Source: an uncultured Roseburia sp.
GTDB lineage: Bacteria > Bacillota > Clostridia > Lachnospirales > Lachnospiraceae
NCBI GenBank assembly: GCA_947567625.1
Contig: CANONN010000037.1
Location: forward strand, 1-35,310
Reading direction: 5' to 3'
Length of the DNA stretch: 35,310 nt
Each line of letters starts with the position of its first letter. Position 1 is the first letter of the stretch. The position numbers were made by a program, and so were the translations under genes. Positions 2,299 through 8,324 of the stretch are shown here, piece after piece. The notes below the pieces were generated by a model, which searched no databases, was not told the DNA's origin, and saw only the letters and a program-made list of their open reading frames with translations.

Positions 2299-4755
2299 TT
2301 ATTTCACTTTTTCAATCACAAGCTGATTCTTTTTCGTCGTCACTACCCATTCAGTACCGGAAACAGCGGTTCCCTCCAAAATCTGCTCCGCCAGCTTATC
2401 TTCAATCTCCTCCTGCATCTTGCGCCGTAGCGGCCTCGCACCGTACTTGGGATCATACGCTTTTTCTACTATATAATTCTTTGCGCCATCCCGCAAGGTC
2501 AGTGTGATATTCAACTGCTTTTGACAGCGCTCCGCCAGCTCTTTTCCCATGATCGAAACGATCTGCTTCATATCCTCCCGGTTTAGCGAGCGGAATACGA
2601 TGGTCTCGTCGATTCGGTTCAAAAACTCCGGCTTGAAAATGCGCTTTACCTCTTCCATCACACCGCTTTTCATGCGCTCATAATCCTGCTTTTCATTATC
2701 GCCGGAAGCAAAACCCAGTTTTTTGGGTTCCACAATCGCCTGTGCGCCTGCATTCGACGTCATGATGATGATGGTATTTTTAAAGTCTACGCGTCTGCCC
2801 TGGGAATCTGTAATGTGTCCGTCATCGAGTACCTGAAGCAAGATATTAAATACATCGGGATGCGCCTTTTCAATCTCGTCAAAAAGGATAACCGAATACG
2901 GATTTCTGCGAACCTTCTCGCTGAGCTGCCCGCCATCCTCATGACCCACATATCCCGGCGGCGAACCGATCATTTTAGAAACGCTGTGTTTCTCCATATA
3001 CTCGGACATATCGACGCGAATCATCGCCTGCTCACTGCCAAAAACCGCCTCGGTCAATGCCTTGGAGATCTCGGTCTTTCCCACGCCTGTCGGCCCCAAA
3101 AACAAAAATGATCCGATCGGCCGTCTCGGGTCCTTTAAGCCCACGCGCCCTCTTCTCACAGCTTTGGAAACCGCAGTCACCGCATCCTCCTGCCCCACCA
3201 CACGCTTGTGCAGAGAGGACTCTAAACGCCGCAGGCGCGCCGATTCCCCCTCCGCCAGTCTCTTCACGGGAATCTTCGTCCAATCGGAGACAATCTCCGC
3301 GATCTCGTCCTCCGTCACCTTAATATTTTTTCTGGAATTTTCTTTCTTTGCCTTATCCGCAATCTTTTCCAGCCTCTGCTCTAACGCCTGTTTCTCCTCC
3401 TTTGCAGCCTTTGCAGCCAGAATATTGCCTGCCTTTAAAGCAGCCTCGAGCGCCGCCACCTGCTCGCTTATCTGCCCGCGCAGCCGTGCATAATCCTCCA
3501 CATGCACATCGGCTTTCAAACGCGCCTTCGCCGACGCCTCGTCCATCAAATCGATCGCCTTATCCGGCAAAAATCTGTCATTGATATAGCGGGCAGCCAG
3601 ATGAACCGCAGCTTCCACCGCATCATCGGTAACCACCACCTGGTGGTGTGATTCATACTGATAGCGCAGTCCTTTTAAGATTTCCACTGCCTGCTCCTCC
3701 GTGGGCTCCTCCACCGTCACAGGCTGGAAACGGCGCTCTAACGCTGCATCCTTCTCGATATGCTTGCGGTATTCCTCGATCGTCGTAGCTCCGATTACCT
3801 GAATTTCCCCACGCGCCAATGCCGGTTTTAAAATATTCGCCGCATCGATGGCTCCCTCTGCTCCCCCTGCTCCGATAATGGTATGGAGCTCATCAATAAA
3901 CAACAGGACATTGCCGGCGCGCCGGACCTCCTGCAGCACCCGCTTGATGCGCTCCTCAAACTCTCCGCGGTACTTAGAACCCGCCACAAGCCCCGACACA
4001 TCCAGCGATACGACGCGCTTGCCCAGCACCGTATCCGGCGCCATGCCGCTGACGATGCGTTCTGCAATGCCTTCCACGATAGCGGTTTTACCGACCCCCG
4101 GCTCGCCGATCAGACAAGGGTTATTCTTGGTTCTGCGGCTCAGGATTTGAATCACGCGATTGATCTCTTCTGTTCTGCCAATCACAGGGTCTAGGGCCCC
4201 CTCCGCCGCCAAATCCGTCAAATCTCTGGAAAACTGATCTAACACCGGCGTACCGTCCTGGCTTTTTTGCCTGCCTGGCCTGCCATTCACAAACTCTTCT
4301 TTATAAAGATTGGCGTCCTCCCCCATCGCAATTAAAGTATCGACATACAATTTTTGAATATTGATGGCAAGTGTATTTAACAATCTGGAAGCGACGCAGT
4401 CCGCCTCTTTTAACATTGCAAGCAATATATGCTCCGTTCCGATCTTGTCTGCCGAAAAGCGCCTTGCCTCCTTGCCTGCATTGGCAAGCACCCGCCCGGC
4501 GCGGGGCGAATAGACGGCTTTCTCCTCGGTCAGCAGGTCGGCAGGCGGCGCGATGAGCTCCTCGATCAACTGTATAATTTTTGCCAGCTCCACATTGTTA
4601 TCCTTTAACACCAGCGAAGCGACGCCTGTTCCCTCTTTCAGTAATCCAATCAACAGATGCTCCGTGCCAATGTACTGATGACGCATGGATTTCGACATCC
4701 TGGCAGCGATATCGATCGCTTTTTTGGCCTTTGCCGTATATATTGTCTGCATCAT
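2299..4755 (-). CDS. clpC: ATP-dependent Clp protease ATPase subunit ClpC
   Basis: Class I Clp/Hsp100 unfoldase that feeds substrates to ClpP. The 818-residue protein shows two N-terminal Clp_N repeats (about 5-150), the first AAA+ module with Walker A GEPGVGKT (217-224) and FIDELH (286-291), a coiled middle domain (about 415-475), the second module with GPTGVGKT (554-561) and FDEIEK, and an LGF tripeptide near residue 680 in the position of the ClpP-docking loop. AGGGAG precedes two adjacent ATGs (4755 and 4752); the second has the better spacing. It lies 32 nt after the cohesin-like gene and seems to share its promoter. The usual ctsR-mcsA-mcsB partners are not in the window, and I see no CtsR-type operator upstream. 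Confidence 0.97.
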
Positions 4756-4787: not shown

Positions 4788-6272
4788 TTACATATCATTA
4801 AAGTCTATAAAATCTGTATCTGCTTCCTCTCTGTTTCCCTCTTTGTCGGCTGCGCCGGCCTTGGGTACCGCTTCTGAAGGCATTTGTTCCGACTGTCTGC
4901 GCCGTTTCCTGCGCGGTGTCCTCTCCTCCAGATCGTCGGAAAACCACTCGCGTCTGGCCTGTTCTCTTCTCTGCTCCGGTGTCAGTTCTTGTTCTTCCTG
5001 CCTTGGTGCACGCGCCCTTTTTGACACACCGGTCTGGCTGTCTCCCGCAAGCGGTTCACGCTCCGTCTGCCTTCGCGGCCTCATTTTTCCGCGGCGGGTT
5101 TCTATCTCGTCATTATCGTCCTCTTTCTGATAAATGCGCAGCAGCAGATTGATAATGATCATCACCAAAATGACGGTCACAAACAGAAATATGATAATCA
5201 TGATCAGACGCGAACGCCTCAGCTTTTCATACAGCTCAGAAATCGTGTTGTATTCTTTTTGCATATATTCCATGTTGGCGGTAAGCAGCTCTACATCCAC
5301 CTCCTCCGTCTCGGTTTCCTCCGTTGGAGGCGTCTGCGTCTCCGCTGCCGTGGGATCGGATTCCTGCGGCAGTATCGTCTCGGTCTCGCTATCTGGCGCT
5401 TGGGATTCATTTGCTTCCGCTGCCGCCTCAGACTCGGCAGGCGGCTCGGTTTCGGCAGGCGCTCCCTCTGCCTCTCTGGTAACCTGCACGGTATAAGTCG
5501 CCGTCACACCGTTCTCCGCCCGCACCACAATACTGACATTATTGACGCCGACAGACAAATTTTCATTGCCGCTGACCGATTCCACCACGGCCTTTTCATT
5601 CACCGGCGTCGCCGTCACGGCAAGGCTGGTAACGCTGTTGGGAACCGTCGCCGTATATTTTGTCACGGGCCCCGAAAAAGCCGGTGACAGCGTGCCTGCC
5701 GACAACACCAGCGATTGCAGTGAATTATCCGCAGAAAGCTTCTTTTCCTCCGTGGTCGTCGTCTGCACCGGAACCGTTGGCTGCTCATCCGGCTTGGGCT
5801 TTTGGGGCGTTGTCTGTATCGTATTATTGTCAACCGGCTGTTCTGCCGCCGCATTATTTACCGTCACCGAGGCGCTGCTCTTAGCCATCGAATCCAATTC
5901 CTCGTTGGTGTCAAAGACAACACCGTCCGAACCGCTGACGGCAATCGACGACTTGCCGGCGGCAATGGCTTTTAGCGTCACCGTAAAACTGTCCGACGTC
6001 GCTGTCACACTGTTTCCGCCTCCGCCGTATGTCGCGGAACAGTTCACAAACTCTAAGATGGCTGCGTCAAACGATACGGTCATGGTGGAAACCGTCTTTT
6101 CCCCTGCCGGCCCCTGCGCTTTCACCGTGACTTTTACCTTATCACCGATGTTCACACTTGAACTGGAGACGGACACAACCGTGCTCCCGCTTGCCGCCAA
6201 GGCACTGTGCTCCGTCCGGCCAAACAAAATGACCGTCACCAGTATGATCCATAATAAACCTTTTTTCTTCAT
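4788..6272 (-). CDS. Membrane-anchored cohesin-like surface protein
   Basis: Predicted surface scaffold of 494 residues. In order: signal peptide (1-27), a cohesin-like beta-sandwich (about 28-140), a Thr/Pro linker, a cadherin-like beta-sandwich domain (about 185-267), a long Glu/Pro/Thr-rich stalk (270-326), one transmembrane helix (about 355-378) and a charged cytoplasmic tail rich in Arg and Glu. The layout places the cohesin-like domain outside and a highly charged tail inside. The preceding gene in the operon encodes a glucosaminidase with a C-terminal dockerin, the natural partner of a cohesin. The start is ATG at 6272 (GAGG then 6 nt); the longer open frame to 6314 has no ribosome binding site. 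The cohesin assignment is by fold pattern and context, not by search. Confidence 0.85.
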   Translation of the reverse strand: MKKKGLLWIILVTVILFGRTEHSALAASGSTVVSVSSSSVNIGDKVKVTVKAQGPAGEKTVSTMTVSFDAAILEFVNCSATYGGGGNSVTATSDSFTVTLKAIAAGKSSIAVSGSDGVVFDTNEELDSMAKSSASVTVNNAAAEQPVDNNTIQTTPQKPKPDEQPTVPVQTTTTEEKKLSADNSLQSLVLSAGTLSPAFSGPVTKYTATVPNSVTSLAVTATPVNEKAVVESVSGNENLSVGVNNVSIVVRAENGVTATYTVQVTREAEGAPAETEPPAESEAAAEANESQAPDSETETILPQESDPTAAETQTPPTEETETEEVDVELLTANMEYMQKEYNTISELYEKLRRSRLIMIIIFLFVTVILVMIIINLLLRIYQKEDDNDEIETRRGKMRPRRQTEREPLAGDSQTGVSKRARAPRQEEQELTPEQRREQARREWFSDDLEERTPRRKRRRQSEQMPSEAVPKAGAADKEGNREEADTDFIDFNDM

Positions 6273-6320
6273 CGTAATCCTCATTTCTTTGTTATCAGGC
6301 CACAGACCGGTCATCTTTTT

Positions 6321-8111
6321 CTATCCGCCGATTGTGGCTATTCCCAGTATATGCTTTTGCAGCAAAACTAAATCCTTGTTGGTAATTTTTCCGTCGCCGC
6401 TGATATCGGCAGCCACTGCCGCGTTTCCCTCCAAAGCGCTGATACCCAAAATATGTTTCTGCATCAGCACAAAATCTTTATTGGAGATTTTTCCGTCACC
6501 GTTCAAATCTCCAAGCGCAATAGGACCGTTGTTCTCACTGTCGGACGGCGTCTGGCTGCCCACCGTCCCCTCGGCGGCGCGTGCAATCGCAATCGTATAT
6601 TCCCGCACGGCGCCATTTTGAGCCGTACAGGTAACGACGATCGTGTTGTCCCCATAGTTTAAGTTATATTTGCCCGTCCCGTTTAGCGTGGACTTGGGCG
6701 CGACAGCTTTGGCCTCCACCTCCACCGATGCCACGTCTTTTGGCACCACCAGAGAGTAGGACGTGCCCGCGCCGGTAAATACCGGCGTCAACTGATATCC
6801 TCGGACGGAAAGTGACGACAGATAATTGTTGGGACTGCCGTTATCGGAAAATGTCACCGGTTCCGGCGGCATATTTTTATAGACGGGTATCCGAAAAACA
6901 AATGCCTGGTTTTTATTGCTGTAAGCCTTTCCCATACTGCTGCCTTCGCTGATGGCAGCCATCACATTCGTCATATACTGATGCGCGTACAAATTTTTGC
7001 TATTCACCACATTAAACTTCTCAAAATAAATCGTATTCTGGCCGCGCTTAATATAGTTCTCCGCCACAACTGCCGATCCGCCTGCAATTGAACCATAGAT
7101 AGAGTTCCATCCGTTCTTCTTTGCCGTGATCAGGCCGTTTACCGTTGTGGAGGCCGTGGAGGTCGGGAACGCCCCGACATTAAAATAATTATAATATCCC
7201 TCGTATCCCTGATAAGTGCCCGATATCAAAGGCCCCGTGCCCTTCACTCCCTGTTCCTGCCTGCAACGGGAAGCAAGATGATAGGGACTGACCGCCAGCA
7301 TTTTTCCGATCTTGGTAAACGTCGCGGCATAGCTTCTCTTTTTTCCGTCGGTATCTTGATACTTGCCGGACATAAATGTATTTTTCAATATGGCGTTTAC
7401 GCCCTCTTTTGTCTGATAATCCGCGTACTCCAACGTCTCAAACTGAAAGATCATATCCTGCGTCAGAAAATTGCGCGGGTCGAGGCAGTACGCGATAAAC
7501 TCCGGCGATGCACACACCCACCCCTCGCCGTCATATCCGTACCAGCGGTTGGTGTTCCAGTCATAGGCCGCAGCATCTGTCGACTTTCTGGCATCGTTGG
7601 CCGCACTCTGCACCAGATTCCGGCCCGGGACACTCTCTTTGGCCACCACATCGGCCCATTCTAAGCCGGTATCTACCGCCACAAACTGCCAGGCAGGATA
7701 CATCTGATGCAGTCCTAGTAGCGCCTCACAGTAACTCTCGGGAAAACCTCCCGCCATAAGCGACTGCACATAGGCATCCGTCTCGCCGCCTGCACTCTGG
7801 GTATCCTTGTTGATAAAATCCGCACGCATATAGCCGACCGCCTCGCCCGCGGCGTCAATATAGGAAATCTGATACCAGACGTAACCGTCGGAACCTGTGG
7901 TTTCCCCTATGATCGTAACAGCGGCGCCGCCTGCAAGCGTCGCCGTCACCTCGCCGTCCACCGGAGCCTTGCGCACGCGCACACTGCTCCCGTTCACCGT
8001 CGCCGCCGTACCCTCCGCGCGCACCGGTACAGCCCAAAAAAACAGCGCAATCAACAGAAAACCGATCGCAGATATATATTTTATCGTTTTATCGTAAGCA
8101 CATTTGTACAT
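6321..8111 (-). CDS. Secreted beta-N-acetylglucosaminidase with SH3 and dockerin domains
   Basis: Predicted peptidoglycan hydrolase of 596 residues cutting next to N-acetylglucosamine. Domains in order: signal peptide (1-32), bacterial SH3 domain (about 36-102), LytD/GH73-like catalytic domain (about 115-400) with the likely catalytic Glu286 in SRCRQEQG, a cadherin-like beta-sandwich (about 428-511) and a type I dockerin (532-596). The dockerin has two complete calcium loops, D535-N537-D539-S543-D546 and D569-S571-D573-T577-D580, each followed by an MQKHILG or LQKHILG helix. AGGA lies 7 nt before the ATG. It is first in the unit read from 8155-8183, with the cohesin-like protein next. The dockerin probably docks the enzyme on that protein. 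Confidence 0.93.
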   Translation of the reverse strand: MYKCAYDKTIKYISAIGFLLIALFFWAVPVRAEGTAATVNGSSVRVRKAPVDGEVTATLAGGAAVTIIGETTGSDGYVWYQISYIDAAGEAVGYMRADFINKDTQSAGGETDAYVQSLMAGGFPESYCEALLGLHQMYPAWQFVAVDTGLEWADVVAKESVPGRNLVQSAANDARKSTDAAAYDWNTNRWYGYDGEGWVCASPEFIAYCLDPRNFLTQDMIFQFETLEYADYQTKEGVNAILKNTFMSGKYQDTDGKKRSYAATFTKIGKMLAVSPYHLASRCRQEQGVKGTGPLISGTYQGYEGYYNYFNVGAFPTSTASTTVNGLITAKKNGWNSIYGSIAGGSAVVAENYIKRGQNTIYFEKFNVVNSKNLYAHQYMTNVMAAISEGSSMGKAYSNKNQAFVFRIPVYKNMPPEPVTFSDNGSPNNYLSSLSVRGYQLTPVFTGAGTSYSLVVPKDVASVEVEAKAVAPKSTLNGTGKYNLNYGDNTIVVTCTAQNGAVREYTIAIARAAEGTVGSQTPSDSENNGPIALGDLNGDGKISNKDFVLMQKHILGISALEGNAAVAADISGDGKITNKDLVLLQKHILGIATIGG

Positions 8112-8154
8112 TGGAATTCCTTATCTCATGTTGATTCTAAAATAATGCAGTCTC

Positions 8155-8183
8155 ATTATATGAAATAATGCGGTATTATGCAA
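8155..8183 (-). promoter_or_regulatory. Promoter of glucosaminidase-cohesin-clpC unit
   Basis: On the minus strand TTGCAT (8178-8183) and TATAAT (8155-8160) are separated by 17 nt, about 43 nt before the glucosaminidase start. No CtsR or CIRCE-type operator is visible beside it. Confidence 0.7.
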
Positions 8184-8286: not shown

Positions 8287-8319
8287 AAAAAAGAAACCGA
8301 TTTTCATCTAACCGGTTTC
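8287..8319 (-). terminator. Terminator of the ATPase/STAS cassette
   Basis: A 7-bp GAAACCG/CGGTTTC stem (8293-8299 with 8313-8319) is followed on the minus strand by six T residues (8292-8287). It lies directly after the stop of the gene at 8325-8762 and closes the three-gene cassette. Confidence 0.85.
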
Positions 8320-8324
8320 CTTGC

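What the first reader, a model, noticed from the sequence alone, without database searches (positions are those of the whole stretch)
4788..8183. Cohesin-dockerin pair built for wall hydrolysis, in an operon with clpC
One transcription unit encodes a secreted glucosaminidase with a complete two-loop type I dockerin and, next, a membrane-anchored protein with a cohesin-like domain, a stalk, one helix and a charged cytoplasmic tail. Both also carry a cadherin-like beta-sandwich. Cohesin-dockerin pairs are known mainly from cellulosomes and some toxins. Here the pair would tether a peptidoglycan hydrolase to the cell's own membrane, with a cytoplasmic tail that could sense or signal. The domains are visible in sequence; the binding and the purpose are inference.
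Basis: partly seen in the sequence, partly recalled or inferred. Interest (0 to 1): 0.75.

Follow-up and report, generated by a model that had tools for sequence, protein, structure and literature searches.

The report
Membrane-anchored dock for a wall-cutting enzyme
A gut bacterium encodes a wall-cutting enzyme with a calcium-type plug and, in the next gene, a membrane protein with the matching kind of socket and a tail inside the cell, an arrangement that recurs in many related bacteria and suggests that a device known from cellulose digestion also positions an enzyme on the cell's own wall; binding is predicted, not shown.

Summary
B (6321-8111, -) is a secreted Atl/SagB-type glucosaminidase with a two-loop type I dockerin. 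A (4788-6314, -) starts 6 bases later and carries a cohesin-type domain, a cadherin-like domain, one membrane helix and a charged tail. clpC follows 32 bases on. Pfam misses A's cohesin; profiles of its relatives find it: 97.3%, E 2.5e-11 against cohesins, 0.3-0.4% for two controls. In the genus, 47 of 63 genomes have both parts, and all 51 with a dockerin have a cohesin once this domain is counted. In the wider family, 171 of 299 genomes have the domain and 47 of 60 fetched loci have B directly upstream. Best reading: a cohesin-dockerin clamp holds a wall hydrolase at the cell's own membrane. Limits: 24 family enzyme ORFs lack a detectable dockerin while the cohesin is no less conserved, and 13 of 60 loci have the cohesin protein without the enzyme (four of these scanned: LytR-CpsA-Psr genes beside all four). 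So A may be a general envelope adaptor with exchangeable partners. Its tail ends in a conserved motif. Binding was not shown; the AlphaFold2 model left docking undecided.

The parts
6321..8111 (-). B: secreted glucosaminidase with SH3-like, cadherin-like and dockerin domains, 596 aa
8016..8111 (-). B N-terminal hydrophobic helix, signal-peptide-like (about residues 1-32)
   Evidence: hydrophobic peak at residue 12; cleavage not predicted
7788..8018 (-). B SH3-like domain, residues 32-108
   Evidence: own profile E 8e-25; Pfam SH3_3 24.4 bits, below its cut-off of 27
6852..7781 (-). B glucosaminidase domain, residues 111-420 (codon of E286 at 7254-7256)
   Evidence: 6fxo E 1.2e-10, 6fxp E 1.6e-10; NF052642 SagB E 4.3e-13 but 49.1 bits against a cut-off of 425; E286 conserved
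6579..6821 (-). B cadherin-like beta sandwich, residues 431-511
   Evidence: PF12733
6345..6515 (-). B type I dockerin, residues 533-589, two symmetric calcium-loop repeats
   Evidence: PF00404; repeat symmetry
4788..6314 (-). A: membrane protein with cohesin-type and cadherin-like domains, 508 aa
5844..6191 (-). A cohesin-type domain, residues 42-157
5472..5705 (-). A cadherin-like beta sandwich, residues 204-281
   Evidence: PF12733
5151..5207 (-). A membrane helix, about residues 370-388
   Evidence: hydropathy
4791..5150 (-). A charged cytoplasmic tail, residues 389-508
   Evidence: topology inferred from a signal peptide read by eye and the single helix
4800..4814 (-). conserved C-terminal motif of A, DFIDF (residues 501-505)
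   Evidence: motif in 74 of 119 relatives against at most 4 in shuffles
2299..4755 (-). clpC, next gene downstream
8290..8322 (-). terminator-like hairpin upstream of B
   Evidence: such sites are no more frequent in the region than in shuffles, so weak alone
8155..8183 (-). promoter-like TTGCAT, 17 bases, TATAAT
   Evidence: read; below the threshold of the scan

Best explanation
A is a single-pass membrane protein that holds a cohesin-type socket and a cadherin-like domain outside the cell, and a charged tail with a conserved end inside. B is a secreted Atl/SagB-type glucosaminidase whose C-terminal dockerin plugs into A's cohesin, probably with calcium and in either of two orientations. The clamp keeps the hydrolase at the outer face of the membrane, where it can trim new glycan strands, and the tail lets the cell place or turn over the complex. 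Shown: domains, gene order, conservation, repeat symmetry, conserved tail end. Inferred: binding, calcium, topology, substrate and what the tail does.
For: Cohesin homology: the profile of 48 A domains finds cellulosomal cohesins in the PDB (3l8q E 3.6e-6, 5g5d 7.3e-6) and the NagJ chain 2jh2 over profile positions 3-115 of 120 (E 3.3e-4); PF00963 matches 31 of 48 members at E up to 0.1, best 6.9e-10; profile-profile against pieces of 30 Pfam-cohesin loci gives 97.3%, E 2.5e-11, 101 columns, controls 0.37 and 0.31%. AlphaFold2: all-beta domain with block pLDDT 92-98 except the last block (79), dockerin 92-97. Genus genomes: enzyme and cohesin 47, enzyme only 3 (fragmented assemblies), cohesin only 4, neither 9, of 63; Fisher 5e-6, relatedness not corrected. 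Of 66 loci in the first set (55 of the genus, 11 of other genera), 50 have B with dockerin and A with cohesin. B lies directly upstream of a cohesin-bearing A in 55 of 60 loci of that set and 47 of 60 of the family set, median gaps 16 and 22 bases. All 51 dockerin-bearing genus genomes have a cohesin; in 21 of them Pfam finds none and this profile does, in 3 Pfam does and this profile does not. Dockerin repeats share loop positions 9-11 within a protein (0.66) far more than between proteins (0.22), 0 of 5000 shuffles, relatedness not corrected; such symmetry goes with dual binding (passages, PMC5429695). Cohesin and dockerin distances correlate after removing ClpC and enzyme distances: r 0.24, 3 of 2000 permutations, n 36; cohesin-cadherin(B) 0.105 (247 of 2000) and cadherin(A)-dockerin 0.025 (795 of 2000) do not. 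The arrangement recurs with another enzyme: a dockerin protein before a cohesin-type/cadherin-like membrane protein in three genomes, a papain-type protease in the two that were scanned.
Against: No binding shown: the AlphaFold2 model of dockerin plus cohesin has pTM 0.56, so no confident docking. The distance correlation is not specific in the wider set (n 65, no ClpC control): cohesin-cadherin(B) 0.226 is at least as strong as cohesin-dockerin 0.182. 24 family glucosaminidase ORFs lack a detectable dockerin and the cohesin is no less constrained there (distance ratio 1.69 against 1.60). 13 of 60 family loci have the cohesin protein without glucosaminidase in the fetched stretch. In G018 (80% complete) B has no dockerin and none was found in the genome, yet the cohesin is there. 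Some genus genomes hold other Pfam cohesins, so partners may cross. Three of the 51 dockerin-bearing genus genomes have a Pfam cohesin but not this domain.
Confidence: 0.65

Rival explanations
1. A is a general envelope adaptor whose cohesin-type domain mainly binds something other than a dockerin (a C-terminal strand of B, the cadherin-like domain, an LCP protein or a wall polymer); the dockerin is an extra plug gained or lost by lineage.
For: 24 family glucosaminidase ORFs without a detectable dockerin beside a conserved cohesin; 11 of these 24 end in a hydrophobic strand-like peptide such as NVTIVP, 0 of 21 with dockerin do, shuffles mean 0.09, maximum 2; LytR-CpsA-Psr genes directly beside the cohesin gene in 4 of 4 cohesin-only loci scanned; cohesin not loosened.
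Against: In the first set 50 of 66 loci have dockerin and cohesin together, and every genus genome with a dockerin has a cohesin; dockerin symmetry is kept. L222, another of the 13 cohesin-only loci, has by its layout no large gene directly upstream on the same strand. Compatible with the best explanation for the window itself.
Confidence: 0.2
2. The N-terminal domain of A is only an Ig-like stalk and B's dockerin binds another protein or nothing; the two genes share an operon for expression only.
For: Pfam cut-off not reached by the window protein, and BatD scores nearly as well there (18.7 against 19.2 bits) and matches 21 of 48 members; docking not confident.
Against: Profile-profile 97.3% to cohesins with controls under 1%; PDB profile hits; in the own genome Pfam finds no cohesin and the cohesin profile finds one place, A.
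Confidence: 0.1
3. Remnant or small version of a cellulosome that displays carbohydrate-degrading enzymes.
For: Cohesin and dockerin families are shared.
Against: One cohesin match and two dockerins in the genome; the enzyme is of the Atl/SagB wall-hydrolase kind; no cellulose-binding domain was listed on A.
Confidence: 0.03

Closest known systems
SagB-SpdC glucosaminidase complex of Staphylococcus aureus (passages seen in PMC10581084)
   Same: A glucosaminidase of a related kind held at the membrane by a membrane protein to cut new glycan strands
   Different: SpdC is an integral membrane homologue of CAAX proteases; here a single-pass protein would hold the enzyme by cohesin-dockerin. SagB is itself membrane-associated.
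Cohesins that anchor single dockerin enzymes on the cell surface (R. albus single cohesin, passages in PMC6118326; non-cellulosomal dockerins of C. thermocellum, passages in PMC5429695)
   Same: One cohesin on the cell, dockerin on the enzyme, no large scaffold
   Different: In the passages seen they come up in the setting of polysaccharide breakdown; here the enzyme is of a wall-hydrolase kind, the anchor is a membrane helix with a cytoplasmic tail, and the two genes are neighbours
Clostridium perfringens X82 cohesins and dockerins (passages in PMC12997984; NagJ chains)
   Same: Single cohesins outside cellulosomes; the NagJ chain matches A's domain over nearly its full length
   Different: There the dockerins sit on glycoside hydrolases and NagJ is itself a glycosidase (O-GlcNAcase in the PDB listing); here the cohesin is on a membrane adaptor
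Dockerin type I PF00404
   Same: B's dockerin is a member above cut-off
   Different: Carried by a peptidoglycan-hydrolase type enzyme

Membership tests
Cohesin (PF00963) | Reaches the Pfam cut-off | tested here: not met
   Window domain 19.2 bits, cut-off 24.1; no match in the own-genome search
Cohesin (PF00963) | Homology to cohesins at profile level | tested here: met
Cohesin (PF00963) | Nine-stranded jelly-roll fold | tested here: inconclusive
Cohesin (PF00963) | Binds a dockerin | not testable with these tools
   Docking undecided at pTM 0.56; binding needs an experiment
Dockerin type I (PF00404) | Above the Pfam cut-off over the whole domain | tested here: met
   45.6 bits against 22.9, profile 1-57 of 57
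Dockerin type I (PF00404) | Two F-hand calcium loops with internal symmetry | tested here: met
   Both loops present; the two window repeats share N-K at loop positions 10-11 (position numbering recalled)
Cellulosome | Scaffoldin with several cohesins and many dockerin enzymes | tested here: not met
   One cohesin match and two dockerins in the genome
Atl/SagB-type glucosaminidase | Sequence homology with the catalytic Glu in place | tested here: met
   curated cut-off of NF052642 not reached; the Pfam Glucosaminidase model did not list B at E up to 1; the catalytic role of that Glu is recalled
SagB-SpdC complex | Partner is a polytopic CAAX-protease homologue | tested here: not met
   A has one membrane helix and other domains
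Atl/SagB-type glucosaminidase | Cuts peptidoglycan glycan strands | not testable with these tools
   needs an enzyme assay

The most novel reading that the evidence does not exclude
A is the first recognised member of a family-wide transmembrane adaptor that couples the inside of the cell to wall enzymes. Its cohesin-type socket takes exchangeable plugs: a dockerin on the glucosaminidase here, a short C-terminal strand in other lineages, perhaps LCP proteins elsewhere. Its conserved C-terminal motif docks a cytoplasmic partner, possibly ClpC. Genomes with a few dockerins and no annotated cohesin would then have had an overlooked cohesin.
Probability: 0.3. Interest if true: 0.82.

Novelty: new variant of a known kind. 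Interest (0 to 1): 0.64.

Why it matters
[quoted passage not shown] In the genus sampled here all 51 dockerin-bearing genomes have a cohesin, and in 21 of them Pfam finds none while this divergent domain is there. If it binds, cohesin-dockerin docking is a housekeeping device of the cell envelope in a large group of gut bacteria, and it offers a simple way to ask how Gram-positive cells position a wall hydrolase.

Tried and rejected
A Pfam-only test of the cohesin gave no match and would have refuted the finding; profiles of relatives reversed that. A first mixed alignment for folding put the dockerins on the cohesin and was dropped. The genome-contig scan gave one locus. A CtsR-like operator was sought with a recalled motif and not found above chance. 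Cellulosome membership was rejected. The distance correlation is not taken as proof because one search did not repeat its specificity. A role for ClpC was considered: adjacency is strong in the first set only, nothing else supports it.

Rows dropped or odd. In one search L084 was miscounted (a contig-edge piece of B was taken for A; its true A has the cohesin); L104 and L089 are cut by contig edges; L126 has the domain but not by my own profile. The 60 family loci are not random: 40 follow the ranking (already fetched ones and contig-edge G618 left out), 20 were picked further down with gaps. L180 has a broken frame; its two enzyme pieces are under 350 aa and are not among the 24. 'No detectable dockerin' in the family set is by my own profile, and by eye the printed C-termini hold no calcium loop; Pfam was not run on them. 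Cohesin-only loci were not searched for a glucosaminidase elsewhere in the genome. Of the 13 such loci, the neighbours of 6 were laid out and 4 scanned. The pieces of the 30 Pfam-cohesin loci were cut by script around the match and not checked one by one. Genome sets were typed from the tables; the cohesin profile was built from many of the same genomes, so its matches there are partly by construction.
Full report
WHAT IS THERE. On the - strand, B (6321-8111, 596 aa) is followed after 6 bases by A (4788-6314, 508 aa) and after 32 more by clpC. B has a signal-like helix, an SH3-like domain, a glucosaminidase domain, a cadherin-like domain and a complete type I dockerin. The enzyme domain matches 6fxo (bifunctional autolysin), 6fxp and 6u0o at E 1.2e-10 to 2.1e-10 (that the last two are SagB is recalled), and E286 lies at their Glu (its catalytic role is recalled). 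A has a cohesin-type domain (42-157), a cadherin-like domain, one membrane helix and a charged tail. These are the only two cadherin-like domains found in the genome.

IS IT A COHESIN. Pfam says no for this protein alone (19.2 bits, cut-off 24.1) and found none in its genome. Homology shows with relatives. A profile of 48 A domains finds cellulosomal cohesins in the PDB (best E 3.6e-6) and NagJ over positions 3-115 of 120 (E 3.3e-4); weak antibody matches start at E 0.009. PF00963 matches 31 of the 48 members at E up to 0.1; BatD matches 21. Against pieces of 30 Pfam-cohesin loci the profile-profile score is 97.3%, E 2.5e-11, over 101 columns; the cadherin-like and SH3 profiles score 0.37 and 0.31%.

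HOW WIDESPREAD. The cohesin profile matches 68 of 146 relatives and 171 of 299 genomes of the family, once in 161 of them and twice in 10. The family is probably Lachnospiraceae: one relative's contig (L005, same length as G043:C64) is titled uncultured Roseburia, and Roseburia lies there; the tool's genome groups are unnamed. In the genus, enzyme and cohesin are in 47 of 63 genomes, the enzyme alone in 3, the cohesin alone in 4, neither in 9. Of 66 loci of the first set (55 of the genus, 11 of other genera), 50 have dockerin and cohesin, 4 a B without dockerin beside a cohesin, 5 a cohesin without B, 6 no cohesin as counted, 1 a B alone at a contig edge (misreadings are listed under tried and rejected). 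In three genomes (G012, G013, G053) A has no cohesin and no enzyme-domain match was found; in G012 an SH3-like domain stands in its place. Of 60 family loci, one genus each, 47 have B directly upstream.

DOES THE PAIR BIND. Not shown. Indirect support: in 50 dockerins (46 distinct repeat pairs) the recognition loop of one repeat matches the other repeat of the same protein (0.66) far better than those of others (0.22), 0 of 5000 shuffles; such symmetry goes with dual binding (passages, PMC5429695). Cohesin and dockerin distances correlate beyond ClpC and enzyme distances (r 0.24, 3 of 2000, n 36), more than dockerin with the cadherin-like domain of its own protein (0.18, 22 of 2000). In a wider set without ClpC the cohesin correlates as well with B's cadherin-like domain (0.226 against 0.182, n 65), so this is weak. 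AlphaFold2 on a chain that holds B's dockerin and A's cohesin (49 rows, 17 relatives joined the same way) gives confident domains but pTM 0.56, which does not settle docking.

WHAT SPEAKS FOR A BROADER ROLE. In the family set 24 glucosaminidase ORFs have no detectable dockerin; 11 of them end in a strand-like peptide such as NVTIVP, which 0 of 21 with dockerin have. The cohesin is no less conserved there (ratio 1.69 against 1.60). 13 of 60 family loci have a cohesin protein without glucosaminidase in the fetched stretch; in the 4 scanned, the gene directly upstream is a LytR-CpsA-Psr gene, while L222 has no large gene there. In three genomes a dockerin protein lies directly before a membrane protein with two cadherin-like domains and a cohesin-type start: the start is matched by my own profile in L135, by the A1 profile in L130 and L135 and by Pfam in all three; the dockerin proteins of L130 and L136 are papain-type proteases, that of L135 was not scanned. 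A's tail ends in an acidic-hydrophobic motif in 74 of 119 relatives against at most 4 in shuffles, and it is kept in four A proteins where the cohesin is missing or cut off by a contig edge. The tail is thus constrained apart from the socket.

MECHANISM. Best reading (0.65): A's cohesin holds B by its dockerin at the outer face of the membrane, and A's tail links the complex to the inside. SagB-SpdC is the closest working model: a glucosaminidase held by a membrane protein to trim new strands (passages, PMC10581084). The parts differ, so this is likeness, not membership.

NOVELTY. Ten searches of the paper library listed no paper on a cohesin-dockerin pair for a cell's own wall hydrolase. This was judged from titles and starts of abstracts, and several lists were capped (20 of 42, 20 of 54, 10 of 35, 15 of 16). 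The library lacks most subscription papers; a survey of non-cellulosomal modules known to me from recall was not held. R. bromii has X modules beside cell wall hydrolase and autolysin domains, with no cohesin-dockerin link stated in the passage seen (PMC5814915). Hungate1000 describes Clostridiales with few dockerins and no cohesins as most likely non-cellulosomal (passages, PMC6118326); in this genus the 21 genomes with a dockerin and no Pfam cohesin all have this domain.

CHECK.

Noticed in passing
window 4800-4814 and relatives: A's cytoplasmic tail ends in a conserved motif (DFIDF here; EVIDFNDL or EFIDL elsewhere), in 74 of 119 relatives against at most 4 in shuffles.
   Followed up: partly
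L178, L179, L182, L184, L190, L191, L196, L197, L201, L208, L227: Glucosaminidases without dockerin end in a hydrophobic strand-like peptide such as NVTIVP after a Gly/Ser/Pro linker.
   Followed up: partly
L130, L135, L136: Dockerin protein of 1059-1703 aa directly before a cohesin-type/cadherin-like membrane protein; papain-type protease with Lectin_like domain in the two scanned, L130 and L136.
   Followed up: partly
L211, L215, L220, L233: Cohesin-only relatives of A lie directly after LytR-CpsA-Psr genes and have a different stretch between cohesin and helix.
   Followed up: partly
L138:8668-13758: The genome's second dockerin is weaker and near the N-terminus of a 1697 aa M60-peptidase-like protein.
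   Followed up: no
L075:6709-8520: An A homologue with an SH3-like domain in place of the cohesin, in a genome without an enzyme-domain match.
   Followed up: no
G037:C11, G052:C11, L137:3313-6492: Cohesin and dockerin within one reading frame.
   Followed up: no
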